The notes under the pieces are model-generated. The model saw only the letters and a list, made by a program, of their open reading frames with translations. It did not search any database and was not told where the DNA came from. Both the position numbers and the translations under genes were made by a program. 64,000 nt of DNA, from positions 24,367 through 88,366 of the forward strand of contig JACQDN010000045.1 in NCBI GenBank assembly GCA_016201105.1. Reading direction: 5' to 3'. Shown here piece by piece: positions 9,309 through 57,412 of the stretch (position 1 is the stretch's first letter; each line of letters starts with the position of its first letter). The stretch comes from Pseudomonadota bacterium. Its GTDB lineage: Bacteria > Pseudomonadota > Alphaproteobacteria > Micropepsales > Micropepsaceae.

Positions 9309-12215
9309 ATGACTCACGACGCCTTCGCTTCCGCCCCGGCGAAACTGCCCAAGCCTTTCGATCCGGCGCGCGCCGCGCGCACGCTCGCGGCCCTCGCGGA
9401 AGGCGAGGGTGGTTTCGCGCCGCCGCCCGCTTCGCGCGCGCTGCTCGAAGCGACGTTCGGCAATTCTCCGTATCTTGCGCGCCTCGCGCTGCGCGAGCGC
9501 GCCTTCCTGCAGGATCTGATCGCGCGCGGGCCTGAGGCCGTCACGCCACAGATCGAAGCGGCGGCGAACCAAGCGGACGCCGCTCCCGATTCCGCCACCG
9601 CGATGACGATCCTGCGCCGTGCCAAACGTCAGGCCGCGCTCACCATCGCGCTCGCGGATATCTCGGGCCTGTGGACCGTTGACGAGGTCACCGCGGCGCT
9701 GACGCGCTTTGCCGATGCCTGCGTCGGCGGCGCGCTGCGCTTCCTGCTGCGCCAGACGGCGGCGCAAGCGCAGTACGCCGAACGCGATCCCGCAAAACTC
9801 GAACGCGACACCGGCCTCATCATTCTGGCGATGGGCAAATACGGCGCTTTCGAACTCAATTATTCCAGCGACATCGATCTCGTCACCTTCTACGACGCGC
9901 GCCGCTTTCCCTTTGCCAAGAAAGGCGATCCGCGCGGCGCCGCCGTCGATATCGTCAAGGGCGTCGTCAAGCTCCTCTCCGAGACGACGGCGGACGGTTA
10001 TGTCTTTCGCACCGATCTGCGCCTGCGCCCCGATGCGGGCGCCACCCAGATCGCCATCTCCACCGAGGCCGCCGAGCTCTACTACGAAGGCATGGGCCAG
10101 AATTGGGAGCGCGCGGCGATGATCAAGGCGCGCGCTTGTGCCGGCGATCTGATGGCGGCGGCGCAATTCCAGAAATCGATCGAGCCGTTCGTGTGGCGGC
10201 GCAATCTCGATTACGCGGCGATCGAGGACATCCACTCCATCAAGCGCCAGATCCACGCCCATGGCGGCCACGGCGCCATCGCGGTGGCGGGTCACAACAT
10301 CAAGCTCGGACGCGGCGGCATCCGCGAGATCGAATTCTTCGCGCAGACCCAGCAGCTCATTCTGGGTGGGCGCAATCCGGCGCTGCGCCCGCGCGCGACG
10401 CTGGAAGCCATCGAGGCGCTGCGCCAGCGCGGACTGGTGAGCGACGCGACGGCTTCAGATCTCACCTAAGCCTATCGCTTCCTGCGCACCCTCGAACATC
10501 GCTTGCAGATGATCGAAGACGAGCAGACGCATACCCTGCCCAAAAGCGACGAAGGCATCGCCCACGTCGCTTGCTTTGCCGGCTTCGAGACCGTGGAGGA
10601 ATTCGGCATTGCGCTGCGCCAGCGCCTGGAAACCGTGCAGGGCCACTATGCCCGGCTGTTCGAGCGCTCCGCCCCGCTCGCCTCCACCAAGGGCAGCCTC
10701 GTCTTCACCGGCGTGGAAGACGATCCCGAAACCATCGAAACGCTGCAGGGCCTGGGCTTTCGCGACGCCAGCCATGTCGCGGGCGCCATCCGCGCCTGGC
10801 ATCACGGCCGCATTCGCGCCACGCGCAGCGCGCGCGCCCGCGAGCTGCTGACGCGACTGGTGCCGCCCCTGCTCGAGGCACTCGCGGCCACCGCCGATCC
10901 CGATGTCGCGTTCGCGCAGTTCGACCGCTTCCTCTCGCGGCTACCCGGCGGCGTGCAGCTCTTCTCCATGCTGCTGGCCAATACCGGCCTCTTGAAGCTG
11001 ATCGCCGAAGTGGCAGGCTCGGCGCCGCGCATCGCCGATCATCTGGCGCGTTTTCCCACCGTGCTCGATGCGCTGATCGATCCGGAATTCTTGGGCGAGC
11101 TGCCCTCGCGTGCGCGTCTGGGCAGATTGCTGGCCGAACAGCTTTCGGCCGCGCGCGACTATGAAGGTGTGCTGGACGCGGCGCGCTGTTTCGCCAAAGA
11201 GCAGATCTTCCGTGTCGGCGTGCAGATCATCCAGGGCGCCGCCAAGGCCGACGAAGCGGGCCCGGCGCTCGCTGCCATCGCCGAATGCGTGATTGCGGGT
11301 CTGCTCCCCGCCGTCGAACGCGAACTGGGTGAAAGCGTCGGCCAAGTGGAGCAGGGCGAATTCGCCGTCATCGCCATGGGCAAGCTCGGCGGGCGCGAGA
11401 TGACGGCGGAATCCGATCTCGATCTGATCTTCGTCTACGACGCGCCTGAGGGCATCGAGAACTCAGACGGCGCCAAACCGCTGCCGGTCAGCGTCTACTA
11501 CGCACGCCTCGCTCAGCGTCTCATTGCGGCGCTGACCACGTTGACGAGCGAAGGCGGGCTCTACGAGGTGGACATGCGCCTGCGCCCCACCGGCAACAAG
11601 GGCCCGGTGGCGGTGAGCCTGGAATCCTTCACCCGCTATCACGCGAGCGAAGCCTGGACCTGGGAGCGCCTCGCGCTCACTCGCGCGCGGGTCATCCTGG
11701 CGCCGGTGAGATTGCGCGCGAACGTCGAACGCGCCATCCGCGACACACTCACCGCTGTGTCCGACCGCGCCAAGCTCTTCAAGGACGCGCGCGAAATGCG
11801 CGAGAAGCTGGCGACGCAGTTCCCTGGAAAGAACCGCTGGGATCTGAAATATGCGCCGGGCGGCCTGATTGACATCGAATTCATCGCCCAGGCCTTGCAG
11901 CTGCGCGATGCGGCGGTCGCACCTCAGGTACTGCAGACGAACACCATCGCCGCGCTGCAGGCGCTGGAAAAATCCGGCGCGCTCGCGAAGGCGGATGCAT
12001 CGACGCTGACCCAAGCCGCCGAACTCGAGCACGCCCTGATGCAAGTCCTGCGTATCGCACTGGACGCCACACTCGATCCCGAGGCCGCGACGCCGGGGCT
12101 TAAAGCGCTCCTGCTGCGCGCCAGCGGGGCTCCGGATTTCGAAGCGCTGGAGCTGCGCCTCGCCGATCTAATGATCCGTGTACGGAGTATATTTGACCGC
12201 GTAATGGCGCGTTAA
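9309..12215 (+). pseudogene. glnE: Bifunctional glutamine synthetase adenylyltransferase/deadenylase, interrupted by in-frame TAA at 10467-10469
   Basis: First part has MGKYGAFELNYSSDIDLV (AR-type); second has MGKLGGREMTAESDLDLIFVYD (AT-type); same frame across the stop: ...SDLT*AYRFLRTLEHRLQMIEDEQTHTLP. Confidence 0.9.
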
Positions 12216-46301: not shown

Positions 46302-46605
46302 GTGGATCGAGATGAGCGCATCCAAATCGCATTTCATCAGTATACGGAATATACGTAGAAGCCGCTGTGGGCTGTTGCGGGCTCTTTCGGGGGGAACGAA
46401 AAAGAACGGATACGAAAGTGAAGGAGACCGATTCCGCGTGATAGCCGCAAGCAAAGGAGACTAAACAGCCAACCCGTTCCGTTGCCGCTGTCACGATGGC
46501 CTCGCGAGGCCGCCGCGGTGACGCGTCCCACGTTGGCTTAACATGACCGCCGCTGCACAGCCGCTGGGCAAGCACGGCTCAAATCGCAGCCAGCCCGCAC
46601 CATTA

Positions 46606-46662
46606 TTGTGCAGTGCAAAAGAAATTTCATCATTGATATCAATCGTCTATTGCATTGCACAA
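46606..46662. promoter_or_regulatory. Candidate operator: inverted repeat TTGTGCAGTGCAA-N31-TTGCATTGCACAA enclosing palindrome ATTGATATCAAT
   Basis: Arms 12/13 complementary; inner 12-bp perfect palindrome at 46632-46643. Confidence 0.45.
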
Positions 46663-46730
46663 AAAAACTTTCATTGTTGACCGCGTACCAAGCGCCGGCG
46701 CGAAAACGCAAAGGTGCCGTACCGGGAGCG

Positions 46731-46798
46731 GCGCCAATGGCGGCGCGCTTCTGATGATAGCGGAGCCGCAACGGCTCCATCACAGACAACGGCGTCTG
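46731..46798 (+). ncRNA. ANTAR (NasT)-responsive two-hairpin leader element
   Basis: P1: gcgcc-AATGGC-ggcgc (46731-46746); P2: cagac-AACGGC-gtctg (46783-46798); both hexaloops have A1 and G4. Confidence 0.75.
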
Positions 46799-46831
46799 AG
46801 CGGCGAGCAATCGCCGGTCGGGCGCTTTTTT
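46792..46831 (+). terminator. Intrinsic terminator in leader, mutually exclusive with ANTAR P2
   Basis: gcgtctgagcggcga-gcaa-tcgccggtcgggcgc followed by TTTTTT; its 5' arm includes the P2 3' arm gtctg. Confidence 0.8.
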
Positions 46832-46867
46832 GTTTTCGGGCCTGGGCCCGAACGAAGGGAATTGGTG

Positions 46868-48190
46868 ATGAGTGGAATCTGGGGCAAGGCCGTCGCGATA
46901 CGCGGTGCAATAGGTTTGGCCGGTGCGGTGGTGTTCGGATCGGCGGCGCATGCCGAACTGCCGTTGGCTGCCGTCTTGGCGCAGGGAAAAGCGATCATCG
47001 ACATTCGCGCCCGTTACGAGAGCGTGAACGACGCCAGCAAGACGAAGGATGCGCAGGCCGGCACGTTGCGCCTGCGCCTTGGTTATGAAACCGGCTACTG
47101 GAACAATCTGCAGCTTTCTTTCGATTTCGATCAGATCTTTGCGACCAGCGGCAAAAACTTCAACAGCACGCGCAACGGCAACACGCTCTATCCTGCAATC
47201 GCCGATCCGGCGATGACTTTTCTCAATCGGGTGCAGCTCACTTACGCAAGCGATTTCGACACCAAGTTCACGGTTGGCCGTCAGCGAATCCTTTTCGGCA
47301 ACCAGCGCTTTGTCGGCAACTCCGGCTGGCGCCAGCACGAGCAGACGTTCGACGCGGTGTCGCTCGTCAATACGTCCGTCAAGGATCTGACGATCAGCTA
47401 TGCCTATGTCGACCGTGTCAATCGCGTGTTCGGCCCGGGCGCCGCACCCGTTCCCGTCGCGGCGCAAGTCGACCGCTTCGACAGCAACAGCCACTTGATC
47501 AATGCCGTTTATGTCGGCGTCGACGATTTGCGGCTTGAGGCCTACGCCTATCTGCTCGATTTTCACAACAAGGGTTTTGCCGCCGGCCTGGCGCGGAAAT
47601 TGTCGACGGCAACCTATGGCACGCGCGGCGAATACCATTTCGACCTGTCGGCCGACATAGCCGGGCAGGCCAATGCGGAGTTTGCCCATCAAACCAACTA
47701 TGCCGGCAATCCCAATTCCTTCGATCTCAACTACTGGCTGATCGAAGGTTCGCTCACCTATGACGGCTTCACCGGTCTTGCGGGTTATCAATCGCTGGGG
47801 AGCGGTCTGGTGAGTTCCGGTCCGCTCGCGGGAAAACCGATCGGCTTCTCGACGCCGCTCGCCACGCTGCACGCCTTCGACGGCTGGGCCGATCTGTTTC
47901 TGACCACGCCGGCGAACGGTCTGGACTCGTTCTATGTGAAAGCGAGCTATGCGATTCCGGATTTCTTCGATCTCGAATTCAAGAGCATCACGGCGAACGT
48001 CATCTACTACGACTTCCGCACCGACCGCTTGGGCGCCGGCCTTGGCAACGAATGGGATGCTTCACTCGACGTCGCCGTCGATAAGCAGGCGACGTTTCTG
48101 TTGAAATACGCCTCCTACAACGGCGCCGGGAATGTTTTTTCGCCGAAGGACAAATCGATCTTCTGGGTCCAGACCGCCTACAAGTTCTAG
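46868..48190 (+). CDS. Outer-membrane beta-barrel (alginate-export/porin-like) protein of nitrate cluster
   Basis: Signal peptide; RARYESVNDASKTKDAQAGTLRLRLGYETGYWNNLQLSFDFDQI...; terminal aromatic WVQTAYKF. Confidence 0.85.
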   Translation: MSGIWGKAVAIRGAIGLAGAVVFGSAAHAELPLAAVLAQGKAIIDIRARYESVNDASKTKDAQAGTLRLRLGYETGYWNNLQLSFDFDQIFATSGKNFNSTRNGNTLYPAIADPAMTFLNRVQLTYASDFDTKFTVGRQRILFGNQRFVGNSGWRQHEQTFDAVSLVNTSVKDLTISYAYVDRVNRVFGPGAAPVPVAAQVDRFDSNSHLINAVYVGVDDLRLEAYAYLLDFHNKGFAAGLARKLSTATYGTRGEYHFDLSADIAGQANAEFAHQTNYAGNPNSFDLNYWLIEGSLTYDGFTGLAGYQSLGSGLVSSGPLAGKPIGFSTPLATLHAFDGWADLFLTTPANGLDSFYVKASYAIPDFFDLEFKSITANVIYYDFRTDRLGAGLGNEWDASLDVAVDKQATFLLKYASYNGAGNVFSPKDKSIFWVQTAYKF

Positions 48191-48200
48191 GAGACGTCAA

Positions 48201-49493
48201 ATGACACATAACAAATCGCAGGGGCCGTCGCGGCGCTCGCTTTTGACAGGGGCGGGCACCGCTGCGCTGCTCGCGAGCGCGCGCGTCATGTTGCCGGGTG
48301 GCGCGTGGGCGGCGGGCGCCGACACGCCGGAGACCAACACCGTAACGCTCGGCTTCATCGCGCTGACGGACTCCTCGCCGTTGATCGTTGCGAAAGAAAA
48401 GGGCTTCTTCGCGAAATATGGGATTACCGATCCCAAGATCAGCAAGCAGGCTTCGTGGGGCGCGACGCGTGACAATATCGAACTCGGTTCCGCGCACGGC
48501 GGTATCGACGGCGCGCACATATTGACGCCGATGCCTTATCTGATTTCGACGGGCAAGATCACAAACGGCGGAAAACTGCCCATGTATATTCTGGCTAGGC
48601 TGAATACCAACGGCCAGGCGATTTCCGTCGCGAAATACTACGGCGATTTGGGTGTCGGTCTCGACTCGTCGAGAATGAAAAGCGCTTTCGGGAAAGTGCG
48701 AATGGGCGGCGGCGATCCCAAGGTCGCGATGACGTTCCCCGGCGGTACCCACGACATGTGGGTACGCTACTGGCTGGCCGCCGGCGGCATCGATCCGGAC
48801 AAAGACGTGTCGACGATCACAGTTCCCCCGCCGCAGATGGTCGCAAACATGAAGGTCAAGACCATGGAGGCCTTCTGTGTGGGCGAGCCGTGGAACGCGC
48901 AACTGGTGAACCAGGGCATCGGCTTCACCGCCTGCGTGACGGGAGAGCTATGGCACGATCATCCCGAGAAGAGCCTCGGGCTGCGCGCCGACTGGGTCGA
49001 CAAGAATCCGAAGGCGGCCAAGGCGGTGACCATGGCGGTGCTCGAAGCGCAACGTTGGTGCGACAAACCGGAAAACCGCAGCGAGATGTGCCAGATCGTC
49101 TCCAAGCGCGAATGGTTCAAGGTTCCGTTTGAGGACATCATCGGACGCACCTCGGGCATGATCGACTACGGAACCGGCAAGACGGTCCAAAACTTCCCCT
49201 ATCTCATGAAATTCTGGAAGGACCACGCATCCTATCCGTTTCAAAGCCACGATGCCTGGTTTCTCGCGGAGAATATCCGCTGGGGGTATCAGCCCGCCAA
49301 TCTCGACATCAATGGTTGGGTCAAGAAGGTCAACCGCGAAGACATTTGGCGTGATGCGGCCAAGGCGATCGGGGCCGCCGGCGACATCCCGGCCTCCACA
49401 TCGCGCGGCGTCGAGAAGTTCTTCGACGGCAAGACCTTCGATGCCGCCGATCCGAAGGCCTATCTCGCCAGCCTCAAGATCAAGCGCATCTGA
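48201..49493 (+). CDS. nrtA: Nitrate ABC transporter substrate-binding protein (Tat-type signal)
   Basis: SRRSLLTGAGTAALLASARVMLPGGAWAAG; VTLGFIALTDSSPLIVAKEKGFFAKYG; FPGGTHDMWVRYWLAAGGIDPDKDV. Confidence 0.92.
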   Translation: MTHNKSQGPSRRSLLTGAGTAALLASARVMLPGGAWAAGADTPETNTVTLGFIALTDSSPLIVAKEKGFFAKYGITDPKISKQASWGATRDNIELGSAHGGIDGAHILTPMPYLISTGKITNGGKLPMYILARLNTNGQAISVAKYYGDLGVGLDSSRMKSAFGKVRMGGGDPKVAMTFPGGTHDMWVRYWLAAGGIDPDKDVSTITVPPPQMVANMKVKTMEAFCVGEPWNAQLVNQGIGFTACVTGELWHDHPEKSLGLRADWVDKNPKAAKAVTMAVLEAQRWCDKPENRSEMCQIVSKREWFKVPFEDIIGRTSGMIDYGTGKTVQNFPYLMKFWKDHASYPFQSHDAWFLAENIRWGYQPANLDINGWVKKVNREDIWRDAAKAIGAAGDIPASTSRGVEKFFDGKTFDAADPKAYLASLKIKRI

Positions 49494-49513
49494 TCGTCAA
49501 AAGGACAACGGCT

Positions 49514-50377
49514 GTGAGCATGACTGGAATTATCCAAACCGTGCGTTCTGCAAGCAAACCGCAACATCGTTTTCGCCTTCCGAAATTGCGTCTGCTGGAA
49601 CAGCTTCGGCACGCGGCGGAGGTCGTCGTTCCGCCGCTCATCGTGCTTGGCGTTCTTCTGGCCGTCTGGGAGTTGGCCTGCAGCGGCGCGCACCCCGCGT
49701 TGCCGCCGCCGTCGAAGGTCCTGCGGGACACCTGGGATTTGATTGTCGACCCCACATTTGATCACGGCGGTACGGACAAAGGCTTGTTGTGGCATCTGCT
49801 GGCGAGTCTCAAGCGCGTGGGAATCGGATTTGGTCTGGCGTCCGTCACGGGTGTAGCGTTGGGTGTCCTGATCGGGCAAAGCACATTTGCCTATCGCGGA
49901 CTCGATCCCATATTTCAGGTGCTGCGCACGGTGCCGCCGCTTGCCTGGCTTCCGATATCGCTCGCTGCATTCCAGAACGCCGACCCGTCCGCGATCTTCG
50001 TGATCTTCATCACCGCCGTATGGCCGATCGTCCTCAACACGGCCGTCGGCGTTCGCCAAATTCCCGAAGACTATAAGAACGTTGCGCGTGTGCTTCGGCT
50101 CAGCGGGCCGGAATATTTCTTCAAGATCACGCTGCCGGCGTCCGTCCCCTACATGTTCACCGGTCTTCGGATCGGCGTGGGCTTGTCGTGGCTCGCGATC
50201 GTCGCGGCTGAAATGCTGATCGGCGGCGTCGGGATCGGGTTCTTCATCTGGGACGCGTGGAACAGCTCGCTGATCAGCGAGATCATTCTGGCCCTGATTT
50301 ATGTCGGCATCGTCGGCTTCCTGCTCGATCGGTTTATAGGCGCCATCGGCAAGCTGGTTGCCGGCCGTCCGATATAG
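49514..50377 (+). CDS. nrtB: Nitrate ABC transporter permease
   Basis: Permease of the NrtB/SsuC family: VLRTVPPLAWLPISLAAFQNADPSAIFVIFITAVWPIVLNTAVGVRQIPEDYKNVARVLRLSG. Confidence 0.92.
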   Translation: MSMTGIIQTVRSASKPQHRFRLPKLRLLEQLRHAAEVVVPPLIVLGVLLAVWELACSGAHPALPPPSKVLRDTWDLIVDPTFDHGGTDKGLLWHLLASLKRVGIGFGLASVTGVALGVLIGQSTFAYRGLDPIFQVLRTVPPLAWLPISLAAFQNADPSAIFVIFITAVWPIVLNTAVGVRQIPEDYKNVARVLRLSGPEYFFKITLPASVPYMFTGLRIGVGLSWLAIVAAEMLIGGVGIGFFIWDAWNSSLISEIILALIYVGIVGFLLDRFIGAIGKLVAGRPI

Positions 50378-50391
50378 CGGAGAAACAACTC

Positions 50392-51180
50392 ATGCGCGGT
50401 TATCTGACGATCGAGCAGATTGGGATGACGTTCCAGGCGGCGAGCGGCGCCTACCAGGCCCTCTCCGACGTTTCGCTGACCATCGCCGAGGGTGAGTTTG
50501 TCGCCATCATCGGCCATTCGGGTTGCGGAAAATCCACGCTCCTCAACATCGTTGCCGGCCTGACGAAGGCCACAACGGGAGCGGTCCTGCTCGCCAACCA
50601 GGTGGTGGACGAGCCGGGCCCCGATCGGGCGGTCGTCTTTCAGAACCATTCGCTGCTGCCCTGGCTTTCTGCCTATGCCAACGTAAGGCTGGCAGTCGAC
50701 AAGGTGTTTCGTTCCAAGCCGGCGCGCGAACGCGACAATTGGACTCGGCAGAATCTCGCGCTCGTGCAGATGCAGGACGCGCTGCACAAGAAGCCGGACG
50801 AATTGTCCGGCGGCATGCGCCAGCGTGTAGGCATCGCGCGCGCGCTCGCCATGCAGCCCAAGGTCCTGCTCATGGACGAACCGTTTGGGGCGCTCGACGC
50901 TCTGACGCGAGCGCGGTTGCAGGATACCGTGATGGATATTCATCGCACGCTCGGCAACACGGTGATCATGATCACGCACGACGTCGATGAGGCCGTGCTT
51001 CTGGCGGACCGCGTCGTGATGATGACGAACGGACCTTCGGCAACGATCGGCGAAATCTGCGATGTGCGCCTGCCGCGTCCGCGCCGGCGGCTCGATGTCG
51101 TCGACAATCCAGACTACGTCCGTTCGCGAAAGGCGATCATGCAGTTCCTCTATGAGCGCCACGCCAAGCAAGCGGCCTGA
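50392..51180 (+). CDS. nrtC: Nitrate ABC transporter ATP-binding protein
   Basis: IIGHSGCGKSTLLNIVAGL; ELSGGMRQRVGIARALAMQPKVLLMDEPFGALDALTRARLQD. Confidence 0.92.
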   Translation: MRGYLTIEQIGMTFQAASGAYQALSDVSLTIAEGEFVAIIGHSGCGKSTLLNIVAGLTKATTGAVLLANQVVDEPGPDRAVVFQNHSLLPWLSAYANVRLAVDKVFRSKPARERDNWTRQNLALVQMQDALHKKPDELSGGMRQRVGIARALAMQPKVLLMDEPFGALDALTRARLQDTVMDIHRTLGNTVIMITHDVDEAVLLADRVVMMTNGPSATIGEICDVRLPRPRRRLDVVDNPDYVRSRKAIMQFLYERHAKQAA

Positions 51181-51184
51181 TACA

Positions 51185-53623
51185 ATGGCGGAAAAGCTCA
51201 TCGTGATCGGCAATGGAATGGCCGGCTGCCGTGCCGTCGAAGAACTGTTGGCGCGAGCGCCGGGCCGCTACGAGATTGCGATCTTCGGCAAGGAACCGGA
51301 GCTCAACTACAATCGCATCATGCTGTCGCCGGTGCTGGCCGGCGAGAAGAGCTTCGACGACATCGTCATCAACGACGCCGGCTGGTATGAACGCAACGCC
51401 ATTGTGCTCCATGCCGGTGTCGAGATCGTCGCCATCGACAAGGCCGCGCGCTTGGCCATCGACGATCGCGGAGGCCGCCATTCCTACGACCGGCTGCTGA
51501 TTGCGACGGGTTCGAACCCGATCATGTTGCCGCTGCCCGGCGCGGATCTGGCGGGCGTGATTTCCTTTCGCGACATCGCCGATGTTCGCGCGATGCTCGC
51601 CGCTTCGACGACAGGTGCGCGCGCGGTCGTCATCGGAGGAGGGTTGCTGGGGCTGGAGGCCGCGAACGGCCTGCGAGCCCGGGGCATGGCCGTCAGCGTT
51701 GTTCATCTTGTCGACACGCTCATGGAGCGTCAGCTCGACGAGGCGGCGAGCTTCCTTTTGAAGCGCGAATTGGAAGCGCGCGGTATCGACGTTCTGACCG
51801 GTGCGTCCACCGAGTGCATCGTCGGAGACCGAGGCGTAAGAGGCGTGCGGCTGAAGGATGGCCGCCATATCGCGGCCGACCTGGTGGTCATGGCGGTGGG
51901 CATCCGCGCCAATATCGCCCTGGCGAAGGCCGCGGGGCTCGACTGCGGGCGGGGCGTCGTTGTCGACGATCACATGCGCACGTCCGATCTCTCGATTTTC
52001 GCGGTCGGGGAATGCGTTGAGCATGGCGGCCAGACCTATGGCCTCGTCGCTCCGCTGTGGGAGATGTGCAAAGCTGCCGCCGATGCTCTCGCCGGAATCG
52101 AGGCACGTGGGTACCGCGGCTCCGCCATAAGCACGAAATTGAAAGTCACCGGCATCGACGTGTTTTCAGCCGGGCAGTTTGGCGGCGGCAACGATACGGA
52201 GGACATCGTTTTTCGCGATGCCGCGATGGGCGTCTACAAGCGCCTCATCTTGGCAGGCGGTCGCCTGGTTGGCGCCGTGCTCTACGGCGATACGCGGGAA
52301 GGCAACTGGTACTTCCAGCTTGTGAAGGACGCCACCCCGATCGACAGCATGCGCGACAGTCTGATCTTCGGACAGGCGCTTTTTGCAGGAAGCGGTCAGA
52401 ACCCTAAATCCGCCGTTTCAGCGTTGCCCGACGCAAGCGAGATTTGCGGCTGCAACGGCGTATGCAAGGGCACGATTTTAAGAGCGATCGGTGAGCATGA
52501 TCTGAAAAGCGTCGAGGATGTGCGGCGCAAGACCAAGGCGTCGTCGTCATGCGGCTCCTGCACCGGCCTTGTCGAACAATTGCTTGTCCTGTCGCTGGGC
52601 GATGATTTCGTTCCCGGGGCCGCGACGAAACCGATGTGCCTCTGCACGACATTGACGCATGACGATGTGCGCCGGCTAATCCTGGCCAAAGAGATGAAGT
52701 CCATTCCCGAAGCGATGCAGGAATTGGATTGGACGACGCCGGACGGCTGCGGTTCATGCCGCCCGGCCCTGAATTACTACCTTCTTTGCGCCTGGCCGGG
52801 CGAATATGTGGACGACAAGCAGAGCCGCTTCATCAATGAGCGGGCGCACGCCAACATCCAGAAGGATGGAACCTATTCTGTGGTGCCGCGCATGTGGGGA
52901 GGCGTCACCAACCCGCGCGAGCTGCGCGCCATCGCCGATGTGGCCGATAAATTCCGCATCCCGACCGTGAAGGTGACGGGCGGGCAGCGCATCGATCTTC
53001 TCGGCGTGAAAAAGCATGACCTGCCGGCGGTCTGGGCGGATCTCAATGCGGCCGGTCTTGTCTCCGGTCACGCCTACGGCAAGGCGCTGCGAACAGTGAA
53101 GACCTGTGTGGGGTCGGAGTGGTGCCGCTTCGGCACCCAGGATTCCACGGCGATGGGCATTCGTCTCGAGAAAATGACGTGGGGCTCGTGGATGCCGCAC
53201 AAGTTCAAGATGGCGGTCTCCGGTTGTCCCCGCAATTGCGCCGAAGCGACGATCAAGGATTTCGGCGTCGTGGCGACGGAGGCGGGATGGGACCTGCACG
53301 TCGGCGGCAATGGCGGCATGAGGGTGCGCGCGACCGATCTGCTCTGCAAGGTGACAACGGATGAAGAGGCGATCGAGTATTGCTGCGCCTTCATTCAGCT
53401 CTATCGCGAGGAAGCCCGCTATCTGGAGCGCACCGCGCCTTGGATCGAGCGCGTGGGACTGAATCACGTCAAGGCCAAGCTCGTCGATGCTCCCCAGACG
53501 CGCGCCGCTCTCGCCACGCGGTTCCTGCATTCGCAGAAATTCTTTCAGGTCGATCCCTGGGCCGAGCGCGCCGAAAAGCGGCGCGACCGCCGGGAATTCG
53601 CCCAATTGATGGGAACAGCGTGA
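51185..53623 (+). CDS. nirB: Assimilatory nitrite reductase, FAD/[2Fe-2S]/siroheme large subunit
   Basis: IVIGNGMAGCRAVEELL; BFD-like CGCNGVCKGTI; siroheme/4Fe-4S CVGSEWCRFG...KMAVSGCPRNCAEA. Confidence 0.94.
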   Translation: MAEKLIVIGNGMAGCRAVEELLARAPGRYEIAIFGKEPELNYNRIMLSPVLAGEKSFDDIVINDAGWYERNAIVLHAGVEIVAIDKAARLAIDDRGGRHSYDRLLIATGSNPIMLPLPGADLAGVISFRDIADVRAMLAASTTGARAVVIGGGLLGLEAANGLRARGMAVSVVHLVDTLMERQLDEAASFLLKRELEARGIDVLTGASTECIVGDRGVRGVRLKDGRHIAADLVVMAVGIRANIALAKAAGLDCGRGVVVDDHMRTSDLSIFAVGECVEHGGQTYGLVAPLWEMCKAAADALAGIEARGYRGSAISTKLKVTGIDVFSAGQFGGGNDTEDIVFRDAAMGVYKRLILAGGRLVGAVLYGDTREGNWYFQLVKDATPIDSMRDSLIFGQALFAGSGQNPKSAVSALPDASEICGCNGVCKGTILRAIGEHDLKSVEDVRRKTKASSSCGSCTGLVEQLLVLSLGDDFVPGAATKPMCLCTTLTHDDVRRLILAKEMKSIPEAMQELDWTTPDGCGSCRPALNYYLLCAWPGEYVDDKQSRFINERAHANIQKDGTYSVVPRMWGGVTNPRELRAIADVADKFRIPTVKVTGGQRIDLLGVKKHDLPAVWADLNAAGLVSGHAYGKALRTVKTCVGSEWCRFGTQDSTAMGIRLEKMTWGSWMPHKFKMAVSGCPRNCAEATIKDFGVVATEAGWDLHVGGNGGMRVRATDLLCKVTTDEEAIEYCCAFIQLYREEARYLERTAPWIERVGLNHVKAKLVDAPQTRAALATRFLHSQKFFQVDPWAERAEKRRDRREFAQLMGTA

Positions 53624-53958
53624 CGCCCGATCGCTGGATCGCTCTGGGTTGGCTGCGCGACGTACCGGCACGCGGCGCGCGCCGAATCGTGACCGCCGAC
53701 GGACCGATGGCGATCTTTCGCACGTCGGACGACCGTGTGTTTGCCGTCGAGGACCGCTGCCCGCACAAAGGCGGACCGTTGTCGCAAGGCATCGTGCATG
53801 ACAGCGCCGTGACCTGTCCGTTGCACGGCTGGGTGATCGATCTTGAGAAAGCCGCGGCGCGCGATCCCGACAATGGCTGCATTAAATCCTTTGCGGTGCG
53901 GATTTCGGCCGGTGTCGTGGAAATACTGCTGCCCCGGATAAAGGCGGCGGCAGAGTAG
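53620..53958 (+). CDS. nirD: Nitrite reductase small subunit (Rieske-type)
   Basis: CPHKGGPLSQGIVHDSAVTCPLHGWVIDL; GTG start overlapping the nirB stop. Confidence 0.9.
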   Translation: MTPDRWIALGWLRDVPARGARRIVTADGPMAIFRTSDDRVFAVEDRCPHKGGPLSQGIVHDSAVTCPLHGWVIDLEKAAARDPDNGCIKSFAVRISAGVVEILLPRIKAAAE

Positions 53959-53962
53959 GACC

Positions 53963-56605
53963 ATGCGAACCACATGCCCCTATTGCGGCGTCGGCTGCGG
54001 AATCGTCGCAAGCGCGCGCCGCGATGGCGACGTCGAGATTTGCGGCGATAGCGGCCACCCCGCCAATGGCGGGCGGCTCTGTGCGAAAGGCTTGGCGCTG
54101 GGCGAGACCATCGGGCTCGAAACCCGGCTGCTCACGCCGCAAATCGGCGGCGAGCCGGCGTCGTGGGATGCGGCGCTCGATCTGGTTGCGAGCAAGTTTC
54201 TTGAGGCTGTTCGCAAGTACGGACCGGACTCTGTCGGCTTCTACGTGTCGGGCCAGCTGCTGACCGAGGACTACTATGTCGCCAACAAGCTGATGAAGGG
54301 ATTCATCGGCTCCGGCAACATCGACACCAACTCCCGCCTGTGCATGTCATCCGCCGTAGCGGGTCATAAGCGCGCGTTTGGAGCCGATGCGGTTCCCGGC
54401 TGCTACGCGGACGTCGAACTCGCCGATCTGGTGGTGTTTGTCGGCTCCAACACGGCCTGGTGCCATCCAGTGCTTTATCAGCGGGTGCTGAAGGCTCGCG
54501 CCGAGCGCGGCGTCAAAATCGTGGTGATCGATCCGCGCCGAACCGCGACCTGCGAAGAAGCCGATCTCCATCTCGCCATCAGGGCCGGAACCGATGTCAG
54601 GCTGTTCAATGCGCTGTTGCTGCAGCTGTCGCGGCGGGGCGCGCTGGACCTCGCGTTCGTGGAGCAACACACCGCGCAATACGAAGAGACGCTCGCCCGG
54701 GCGGCGGCGGACGACTGTTCGGCCCAAGCCGTTGCCGCGCACTGCGAGGTCGAAACGCGAGACGTCGAGACGTTCTTCGCGTGGTTTGCGGCGACCGCGC
54801 GCACGGTTACCGCCTTCTCGCAGGGGGTCAATCAATCGACGCGCGGAGCCGACAAGGTCAATGCCATCGTCAATTGCCATCTGGCGACCGGTCGCATTGG
54901 AAAACCCGGTGCCACTCCCTTTTCGATTACGGGTCAACCCAACGCCATGGGCGGCCGCGAGGTGGGCGGCCTCGCGAACCAGCTCGCCGCACACATGGAC
55001 TTCGGCCCGGAAGAAAACGTATCGCGTCTGCAGCGGTTCTGGAATTCCCGCAACGTGGCGCGCCGGCCGGGCCTGATGGCGGTCGACATGTTTCGCGCTG
55101 CTGGCGATGACCGGCTGCGTGCTTTGTGGATCATGGCGACCAATCCGGCGGCGAGCCTGCCCGATGCCGGACGCGTGCGCGAAGCGCTTGGCGCCTGCGA
55201 TTTCGTTGTCGTCTCGGATTGCGTCGCGCAAACCGATACGGCGAAGTTCGCCCATGTGCTGTTGCCGGCGGCGGCATGGGGTGAAAAGGACGGCACGGTC
55301 ACCAACTCGGAGCGCTGCATCTCCCGGCAACGCGCGTTTTTGGACGTGCCCGGCGAAGCGCGGCCCGATTGGTGGATGATCGCCGAAGTAGCCCGACGGA
55401 TGGGATTTGCGCGCGAATTCCCCTATCGCGCGCCGGCGGAGATATTCCGCGAGCACGCTGCGTTGTCGGCGTTCGAGAACACCGGGACGCGGGCCTTTGA
55501 CATCGGCGGCCTCACCGAGCTCAGCGACGCGCAATACGACGCACTCAAACCCGTTCAATGGCCGGTGCCCGTGAAATCGAGAACAGGACCGCAACGCCTG
55601 TTCGCCGACGGCCAGTTCTTCACGCCCGACAAGCGTGCCCGGTTCATTGCCGTCGCCGCGCAAGCTCCCGCGCAGTCGTTGAGCGCGCGCTATCCTCTGA
55701 TCCTCAACACCGGCCGGGTTCGTGATCACTGGCACACCATGACGCGCACCGGCTTGTCGGCGCGGTTGTCCAGCCATCGACCCGAGCCATGCGTGGAAAT
55801 TCATCCCGACGATGCCGCGCACGCCGGAATCGCCGACGGCGATTTGGCGCGCGTTGCAACGGCATGGGGCTCGACGGTATTGCGAGCGTCTTGCGTCGGC
55901 AGCCAAAAGCGCGGCGCCTTGTTCGTGCCAATTCACTGGACGGCGACGAACGCCGCCAGCGCGCTCGCGGGCAGCATGGTCAATCCGTTCGTCGACGCGA
56001 TCTCCGGCCAGCCCGAATTCAAGCATACGCCGGTTCGGCTCGATCCGTTTATCCAGACGTGGCGCGGCTTCCTTCTGACGCGCACCGAGATCGCGCCGCT
56101 CGCCATCGCATATTGGGCAAAACGACGGGTGCGAGGCGGTCTTCTTTATGAATTGGCCGGTGGCGTGGGTGATCAGATGCCGGGTTTCGATGTGTTCGGC
56201 AACGCCGGACAGGGCGGCGAACGAGTCGAGATCGTCAATGACAAGCAGTGCGACTATCGCCTCGCACGTATCGTGGACGGGCGGCTGACGCATTGTCTTA
56301 TCCTCACGCGCTCGGGCAGCTTGCCGCCGCGCGAGTGGCTCTCCTCGCTGCTCGATGGAATCGCTCTGACGCTGGCGGATCGGGTCACCTTGCTTGCCGG
56401 GCGGCCGGCGGGCGGCGGCGGCGATGAGGGGCCTCTTGTCTGCGCCTGCTTCGGTGTTTCCAGAACGCGGATCGCCAGAACCGTGCGCGACGAAAAACTT
56501 GTCAGCGTGGAGGCGATCGGCGCCGTGCTGGGCGCGGGAACGAATTGCGGATCGTGCCGCGCCGAACTCCGCGGTATCCTCGAGACCGAGGCGTTGCGTG
56601 CGTAG
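53963..56605 (+). CDS. nasA: Assimilatory nitrate reductase catalytic subunit with C-terminal BFD-like [2Fe-2S] domain
   Basis: TCPYCGVGCGI 4Fe-4S motif; molybdopterin oxidoreductase body; C-terminal CACFGVSRTRIARTVRDEKL...GTNCGSCRAEL. Confidence 0.95.
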   Translation: MRTTCPYCGVGCGIVASARRDGDVEICGDSGHPANGGRLCAKGLALGETIGLETRLLTPQIGGEPASWDAALDLVASKFLEAVRKYGPDSVGFYVSGQLLTEDYYVANKLMKGFIGSGNIDTNSRLCMSSAVAGHKRAFGADAVPGCYADVELADLVVFVGSNTAWCHPVLYQRVLKARAERGVKIVVIDPRRTATCEEADLHLAIRAGTDVRLFNALLLQLSRRGALDLAFVEQHTAQYEETLARAAADDCSAQAVAAHCEVETRDVETFFAWFAATARTVTAFSQGVNQSTRGADKVNAIVNCHLATGRIGKPGATPFSITGQPNAMGGREVGGLANQLAAHMDFGPEENVSRLQRFWNSRNVARRPGLMAVDMFRAAGDDRLRALWIMATNPAASLPDAGRVREALGACDFVVVSDCVAQTDTAKFAHVLLPAAAWGEKDGTVTNSERCISRQRAFLDVPGEARPDWWMIAEVARRMGFAREFPYRAPAEIFREHAALSAFENTGTRAFDIGGLTELSDAQYDALKPVQWPVPVKSRTGPQRLFADGQFFTPDKRARFIAVAAQAPAQSLSARYPLILNTGRVRDHWHTMTRTGLSARLSSHRPEPCVEIHPDDAAHAGIADGDLARVATAWGSTVLRASCVGSQKRGALFVPIHWTATNAASALAGSMVNPFVDAISGQPEFKHTPVRLDPFIQTWRGFLLTRTEIAPLAIAYWAKRRVRGGLLYELAGGVGDQMPGFDVFGNAGQGGERVEIVNDKQCDYRLARIVDGRLTHCLILTRSGSLPPREWLSSLLDGIALTLADRVTLLAGRPAGGGGDEGPLVCACFGVSRTRIARTVRDEKLVSVEAIGAVLGAGTNCGSCRAELRGILETEALRA

Positions 56606-56815: not shown

Positions 56816-57412
56816 ATGACTTGCCAGCTGAAAATTCTGATTGTCGACGACAATCCGTTGCGTGCGACCATTATCGAAGATGGTCTGCGCGAAGCCGGCC
56901 ATGACAACGTTGCGCGGCTGCCGGATACGGAAAACCTTCTCACCCGCATTTCCGCCATCGATCCCGACGTCATCGTTATCGACCTGGGCAGCCCCAGTCG
57001 CGATATCCTGGAGCAGATGTTTCACATCAGCCGGACGGTCAAGCGGCCGGTAGCCATGTTTGTCGACCAGAGCGATAGCGCTTCCATTCGCGCGGCGATG
57101 GATGCCGGCGTCTCGGCCTATGTCGTCGACGGCCTCAAGAAGGAGCGCATCAAGCACATTTTGGACATGTGCATTTCGCGCTTCAACGTGTTCTCCCGCC
57201 TGCTGGAGGAGTTGAGCGAGGCCAAGACCGCGCTTGCCGAGCGAAAGGTACTCGATCGCGCCAAGGGCATTCTGATGAAGGCCAATGGCATTGCAGAGGA
57301 GGAGGCTTATGCGCTCATGCGCAAGACGGCGATGAACGAAAAGCGGCGGATCACGGACGTCGCGCGCGCGCTGATTACGGCGTCCGATATGCTGGAAGGC
57401 GGACGGAGATGA
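56816..57412 (+). CDS. nasT: ANTAR-domain antiterminator response regulator
   Basis: KILIVDDNPLRATIIEDGLREAGH; ANTAR helices KTALAERKVLDRAKGILMKANGIAEEEAYALMRKTAMNEKRRITDVARALI. Confidence 0.93.
   Translation: MTCQLKILIVDDNPLRATIIEDGLREAGHDNVARLPDTENLLTRISAIDPDVIVIDLGSPSRDILEQMFHISRTVKRPVAMFVDQSDSASIRAAMDAGVSAYVVDGLKKERIKHILDMCISRFNVFSRLLEELSEAKTALAERKVLDRAKGILMKANGIAEEEAYALMRKTAMNEKRRITDVARALITASDMLEGGRR

What the first reader, a model, noticed from the sequence alone, without database searches (positions are those of the whole stretch)
46731..46837. ANTAR/NasT antitermination leader in front of the nitrate porin and transporter operon
Seen directly: P1 gcgcc-AATGGC-ggcgc and P2 cagac-AACGGC-gtctg each have a 6-nt loop with A at position 1 and G at position 4. 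The P2 3' arm (46794-46798) is also part of the 5' arm of a strong 15-bp terminator hairpin followed by TTTTTT. This is the arrangement described for ANTAR-protein antitermination, and a NasT/NasS pair is encoded 10 kb downstream. The regulated gene here would be an outer-membrane porin at the head of a nine-gene cluster. Whether the porin is part of the NasT regulon in relatives is an inference to test.
Basis: partly seen in the sequence, partly recalled or inferred. Interest (0 to 1): 0.75.

Follow-up and report, generated by a model that had tools for sequence, protein, structure and literature searches.

The report
Three-hairpin nitrate antitermination leader RNA
Ahead of a nitrate-uptake and nitrate-reduction operon lies an RNA switch of a known type (ANTAR/NasT antitermination), but here and in many alphaproteobacterial relatives it carries an extra hairpin upstream, so the binding hairpins sit farther apart than published rules for this type of switch allow.

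Summary
Both A1/G4 hexaloop hairpins, the terminator and the overlap of the P2 3' arm with it lie at the stated coordinates. A covariance model built without the window finds this site first in the whole genome (72 bits, E = 2e-15; next 21 bits). The genome's only ANTAR protein is the NasT at the end of the same gene cluster. The NasT interpretation is therefore well supported by comparison, though not by experiment. The same leader type precedes homologous porins in at least a dozen other loci, so the porin belongs to the predicted regulon.

It lies 36 nt from P2, whereas published ANTAR targets use 2-25 nt (5-12 nt in eut). Among 37 non-redundant NasT-linked alphaproteobacterial leaders chosen without regard to P1, 24 carry a distal A1/G4 hexaloop (shuffles 0.8), 20 an adjacent one (shuffles 0.2), 10 both. 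Predicted sigma-54 start sites agree: leaders too short to hold the distal hairpin lack it. New variant of a known kind; I found no published description of the third hairpin.

The parts
46596..46612 (+). NtrC-type site CGCACCATTATTGTGCA (2 mismatches to TGCACCAWWWTGGTGCA), candidate nitrogen-limitation activator site
   Evidence: 2 matches in the window, 0.02 expected by chance; function inferred
46603..46665 (.). imperfect inverted repeat TTATTGTGCAGTGCAAAAGA / TCTATTGCATTGCACAAAAA, probable promoter/operator region; a similar pair lies upstream in L014
   Evidence: 85% complementary arms; L014 ATTGTGCAGCGCA ... GTTGCAACGCACAA, about 9768-9824; role inferred
   Evidence: covariation of this helix in an alignment with 6 relatives, 4 of 5 pairs with changes on both sides
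46762..46778 (+). middle hairpin ggagcc-GCAAC-ggctcc (closes further to 7 bp with a CAA loop), in the canonical P1 position but without an A1/G4 hexaloop
   Evidence: hairpin at the same place in relatives
46783..46798 (+). P2 antiterminator hairpin cagac-AACGGC-gtctg, A1/G4
   Evidence: loop A1 and G4 invariant in the seven-leader alignment
46792..46831 (+). intrinsic terminator (stem 46792-46825, T6 46826-46831); its 5' arm contains the P2 3' arm
   Evidence: -26.6 kcal/mol hairpin against -4.9 for P2 alone
46868..48190 (+). outer-membrane porin, first gene of the cluster (weak Alginate_exp / Opr-porin match, below curated cut-offs)
48198..51180 (+). nitrate ABC transporter NrtA, NrtB, NrtC (48198-49493, 49514-50377, 50389-51180)
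   Evidence: TIGR01183, TIGR01184 above cut-off
51185..53958 (+). nitrite reductase NirB (51185-53623) and NirD (53623-53958)
   Evidence: TIGR02374, TIGR02378 above cut-off
53963..56605 (+). assimilatory nitrate reductase NasA, molybdopterin type
56816..57412 (+). NasT: receiver domain plus ANTAR domain, the only ANTAR protein found in the genome
57409..58551 (+). NasS: NMT1-like nitrate sensor

Best explanation
A nitrate-responsive transcription attenuator. Without nitrate, NasS holds NasT and the leader terminates before the porin gene, because the terminator fold is about 12 kcal/mol more stable than the fold with P2. With nitrate, NasS releases NasT. NasT is recruited first by the distal hexaloop, which is made earliest, and then holds the P2 hexaloop. 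P2 withholds the 5' arm of the terminator, and polymerase reads through into porin-nrtABC-nirBD-nasA. The middle hairpin occupies the usual P1 place; in the window it has lost the hexaloop and most likely works as a folded spacer that brings the distal hairpin and P2 close together. Shown here: the anatomy, the leader type in relatives, recurrence of the distal hairpin, and the single ANTAR protein. Inferred: NasT binding, order of events, spacer role, read-through. The confidence given is for NasT-dependent antitermination using the distal and P2 hairpins; the spacer role on its own I put near 0.5.
For: Anatomy and stability. Leave-one-out covariance model finds the leader as the clear top hit in the genome. 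Only one ANTAR protein in the genome, the NasT of the same cluster. NasT aligns to EutV with its RNA-contact Tyr kept and the two Lys as Lys and Arg (contact residues from PMC8934654; position mapping is my own reading). Homologous leaders precede porin/nrtA/nirB in many genomes. Survey of 37 leaders picked by NasT proximity and by P2 plus terminator only: distal A1/G4 hexaloop 24, shuffles mean 0.81, max 4; adjacent 20, shuffles 0.20; farther upstream 1, shuffles 0.80. Replication in 14 further alphaproteobacterial leaders: distal 7, shuffles 0.29. Predicted sigma-54 start within 38 nt of P2: distal hairpin in 0 of 6; 41 nt or more: 14 of 19, Fisher p = 0.003. Helix of the distal hairpin covaries. 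NasT binds the nasA leader RNA of Paracoccus, and a hairpin mutation there abolishes growth on nitrate (PMC3795266; PMC5424462).
Against: No experiment exists for this genome. EutV tolerates only short P1-P2 linkers, and a 20-nt extension abolishes antitermination (PMC8934654; PMC3369931); whether a folded linker rescues this is unknown. Some relatives (gammaproteobacterial Nevskia-like loci) have a distal hairpin but no folded linker, so the spacer role is not general. Congeneric genomes lack a close NasT and a strong leader match, so conservation is across genera rather than within the genus.
Confidence: 0.75

Rival explanations
1. Plain dual-hairpin ANTAR element: the distal hairpin is P1, P2 is P2, and the 36-nt gap is an unimportant linker.
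For: Only these two hairpins have A1/G4 hexaloops. The dual-hairpin definition of 2012 allows a variable linker. Nevskia-like leaders have 26-29 nt linkers without a hairpin.
Against: The gap exceeds the 2-25 nt used as a curation criterion and the 5-12 nt of eut. The gap is not random: it holds a hairpin placed like P1 in relatives, and its fold beats all 200 shuffles.
Confidence: 0.25
2. Relay of two recruitment hairpins: in the three-hexaloop relatives NasT uses distal and middle loops in turn before P2; the window is a derived case in which the middle loop has decayed.
For: Ten of 37 leaders carry A1/G4 in all three hairpins and four more carry G1/G4 in the middle loop (rows). The step-wise P1-to-P2 transfer model for EutV extends naturally to a third hairpin.
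Against: Not distinguishable from redundancy by sequence. The tendency that the middle loop decays when a distal hairpin is present is only suggestive (Fisher p = 0.08).
Confidence: 0.4
3. The middle hairpin of the window is an anti-antiterminator: its flank TCTGATGAT pairs with ATCACAGA, taking up the P2 5' arm and favouring termination.
For: The minimum-energy fold of the leader shows this pairing.
Against: Seen by eye in the window only; the flanks of the closest relatives do not show it, and it was not tested systematically.
Confidence: 0.15
4. Chance hairpins around an ordinary, unregulated terminator.
For: A GC-rich genome makes hairpins common.
Against: as above; A1/G4 outnumber other hexaloops in the relevant zones and not farther upstream.
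Confidence: 0.02

Closest known systems
NasS-NasT nasA leader of Paracoccus denitrificans
   Same: NasT (receiver-ANTAR) with nitrate sensor NasS, leader hairpins ahead of nitrate-assimilation genes, terminator control (PMC3795266, PMC5424462)
   Different: The published text names two hairpins (HI, HII) or an unspecified series; here a distal hexaloop, a middle non-hexaloop hairpin and P2, with a porin as first gene
ANTAR dual-hairpin target (eut of Enterococcus, nasF of Klebsiella, amiE of Pseudomonas)
   Same: Hexaloops with A1 and G4, P2 overlapping an intrinsic terminator (PMC3369931)
   Different: 36 nt between the two A1/G4 hairpins instead of 5-12 (eut) or 2-25 (curated actinobacterial set); an extra hairpin lies between
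NasT-linked leaders of Bradyrhizobium diazoefficiens (nos, nap, nirA, narK)
   Same: NasT antitermination of nitrogen-oxide genes (PMC6759348)
   Different: The word porin does not occur in that paper; the number of hairpins is not given in the passages read

Membership tests
ANTAR target RNA (dual hairpin) | two hairpins with 6-nt loops, A at 1 and G at 4, stems of at least 3 bp | tested here: met
   AATGGC and AACGGC, 5 bp each
ANTAR target RNA (dual hairpin) | P2 overlaps a mutually exclusive intrinsic terminator | tested here: met
ANTAR target RNA (dual hairpin) | short linker between the two hairpins (5-12 nt eut; 2-25 nt curation rule) | tested here: not met
   36 nt with an intervening hairpin (rules). 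The 2012 definition itself says 'variable'
ANTAR target RNA (dual hairpin) | structure kept through covariation in homologous leaders | tested here: met
   for the distal helix; the P2 helix is nearly invariant in the close set, so uninformative there, but P2 stems vary widely in the larger surveys, which were selected for pairing
ANTAR target RNA (dual hairpin) | bound by an ANTAR protein | not testable with these tools
   only candidate in the genome is the adjacent NasT
NasS-NasT two-component system | NasT with receiver plus ANTAR domain | tested here: met
   PF00072, PF03861 above cut-off; EutV 6wsh E 6.5e-21; NasR 4akk 1.4e-10
NasS-NasT two-component system | NasS, NMT1-like sensor next to nasT | tested here: met
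   (PF13379, 221 bits); the two genes overlap by 4 bases
NasS-NasT two-component system | nitrate-dependent release of NasT | not testable with these tools
   needs protein work

The most novel reading that the evidence does not exclude
Alphaproteobacterial NasT leaders are a distinct three-hairpin class of ANTAR attenuator in which a promoter-proximal distal hexaloop recruits NasT and a middle hairpin, free to lose its hexaloop, bridges it to the antiterminator. This would overturn the short-linker rule drawn from EutV.
Probability: 0.5. Interest if true: 0.6.

Novelty: new variant of a known kind. Interest (0 to 1): 0.5.

Why it matters
How an ANTAR dimer uses two hairpins is unsettled: the crystal structure with RNA suggested that it cannot hold both at once and passes from one to the other (PMC8934654). 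A natural family with two or three A1/G4 hairpins, with predictable start sites and with natural losses of the middle loop, gives ready-made test pieces for recruitment against spacing. It also means that dual-hairpin searches with short linkers will miss or misassign many NasT leaders, and it adds an outer-membrane porin to the predicted nitrate regulon.

Tried and rejected
Rfam has no ANTAR family that matches (only sub-threshold miRNA/snoRNA chance hits on the upstream inverted repeat). The weak second genome hits of the covariance models (C5:40536, C22:13322) were read; the first lies inside a molybdate-binding-protein-like reading frame, the second showed no P2/terminator arrangement on inspection. 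A coding extension through the leader (open frame from 46655) was rejected, since the signal-peptide start is at 46868. A sigma-54 promoter was sought in the window and not found ahead of the leader. Named plasmid records came without gene annotation; only Azospirillum brasilense (L178) and Novosphingobium (L175) gave leaders. Three-hexaloop counts in non-alphaproteobacteria are lower, so no general claim is made there. The 2012 Azotobacter NasT paper is not in the library.

Full report
OBSERVATION. The two loops are AATGGC and AACGGC, both with A at 1 and G at 4. The terminator stem spans 46792-46825 and is followed by six T. The P2 3' arm lies in the terminator 5' arm. The leader folds much better than shuffles (z -4.6), and within the 64 kb window no other pair of such hairpins is followed by a U run. 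To avoid circularity I built a covariance model from six relatives without the window. It finds the window leader as top hit of the whole genome with 72 bits, the next hit having 21 bits, and that one lies in a coding frame.

SURROUNDINGS. The leader precedes porin, nrtA, nrtB, nrtC, nirB, nirD, nasA, nasT, nasS on one strand. The NasT is the only ANTAR protein found in the genome (assembly 98.6% complete). It aligns with the ANTAR protein EutV (E 6.5e-21) and with NasR. By my reading of that alignment, the RNA-contact tyrosine (Tyr164 of EutV) is kept, and Lys143 and Lys147 correspond to Lys and Arg. No terminator or sigma-70-type promoter was found between nasA and nasT, so co-transcription of nasTS with the cluster is possible, which would make a positive loop; this is not shown. 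Upstream of the leader lies a site two mismatches away from the enterobacterial NtrC consensus (46596-46612; 0.02 matches expected; the consensus itself is from my own knowledge) and a larger inverted repeat that has a counterpart in L014. The genome encodes sigma-54, but no sigma-54 promoter is seen here.

RELATIVES OF THE PORIN LEADER. The porin was searched in named genome contigs and in a sample of the class. Leaders with the P1/P2/terminator overlap precede homologous porins in L014, L022, L044, L054, L055, L058, L064, L065, L067, L070, L074, L083 and L084. The closest relative is a metagenome-assembled alphaproteobacterium with porin-nrtABC-nasT-nasS (L014; porin 57%, NrtA 78%, NasT 69% identity). 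Genomes of the same genus lack a close NasT and show no convincing leader, so the cluster was probably gained by transfer (inference).

THE MIDDLE HAIRPIN AND THE DISTAL HAIRPIN. In the window the two A1/G4 hairpins are 36 nt apart. Between them lies a third hairpin (46762-46778), 4 nt from P2, with a GCAAC pentaloop that can close further to CAA. In relatives such as L065/L149 all three hairpins are A1/G4 hexaloops. I then surveyed leaders chosen only because a NasT is near, a P2 hexaloop overlaps a terminator, and a nas gene follows. In 37 non-redundant leaders, 20 have an A1/G4 hexaloop adjacent to P2 (0-12 nt; shuffles mean 0.20, max 3), 24 have one distally (13-62 nt; shuffles 0.81, max 4), and only 1 has one farther up (63-110 nt; shuffles 0.80, max 4). 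By my count of the rows, 10 have both, 4 have distal A1/G4 plus a G1/G4 middle loop, 10 are distal only and 10 adjacent only. A second set of 14 alphaproteobacterial leaders gave 7 distal and 5 adjacent (shuffles 0.29 and 0.06). Thirty-five non-alphaproteobacterial leaders gave 13 and 12, mostly not together. Loci in the second set came from a phylum-wide draw.

PROMOTER GEOMETRY. Most of the 37 leaders have a sigma-54 promoter (TGGCAY-N7-GC) upstream. Where the predicted start lies within 38 nt of P2, no distal hairpin exists (0 of 6). Where it lies 41 nt or more away, 14 of 19 have one (Fisher p 0.003). The distal hairpin thus appears where it would be transcribed, near the 5' end of the RNA. 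This is independent support that it is part of the leader.

LINKER FOLD. In most alphaproteobacterial leaders with a distal hexaloop the linker folds into a hairpin ending 0-5 nt before P2, whether or not its loop is A1/G4. For the window the linker is more stable than all 200 shuffles. Exceptions are the Nevskia-like leaders (L044, L054, L055, L058), whose linker does not fold by itself. In the seven-leader alignment the distal helix has 4 of 5 pairs with changes on both sides and 94% of cells paired.

MECHANISM. NasT is held by NasS without nitrate and binds leader RNA with nitrate in Paracoccus (PMC3795266); a hairpin mutation there abolishes growth on nitrate (PMC5424462). For EutV a short linker is needed and 20 extra nt abolish antitermination, and a step-wise transfer from a recruitment hairpin to the antiterminator hairpin was proposed. 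For the window I conclude: terminator by default (its fold is 12 kcal/mol better than the best fold with both hexaloop hairpins), and NasT-dependent antitermination through the distal and P2 hexaloops, with the middle hairpin as compact spacer. The NasT dependence is inferred from comparison; the spacer role is a hypothesis.

NOVELTY. NasT leaders are known, and so is the dual-hairpin rule. I found no description of a third, distal hexaloop or of a middle hairpin with lost loop in the open-access papers searched. Subscription papers, including the Azotobacter work, could not be read. Verdict: new variant of a known kind.

Noticed in passing
window 46596-46665: NtrC-like site plus a 20-nt imperfect inverted repeat upstream of the leader; a similar repeat pair with nearly the same spacing lies upstream of the L014 leader, although the window has no sigma-54 promoter.
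   Followed up: partly
window 46750-46787: The flank TCTGATGAT can pair with ATCACAGA and so occupy the P2 5' arm, extending the middle hairpin; seen in the window only.
   Followed up: partly
G000:C71:88968-90149 (L012): Second porin of the same family (42% identity) elsewhere in the genome, without an ANTAR leader detected in the 4 kb locus.
   Followed up: partly
L106-L163: Many NasT leaders in alphaproteobacteria have a sigma-54 -24/-12 promoter whose predicted start lies just upstream of the first hairpin.
   Followed up: partly
L178, minus strand, about 250 nt before nirB: Azospirillum brasilense Sp7 nirB leader appears to carry three hexaloops, the middle one GACGGC (G1/G4).
   Followed up: partly
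L117, L123, L129, L141: Middle loops with G instead of A at position 1 but G kept at 4, in leaders that also have a distal hexaloop.
   Followed up: no
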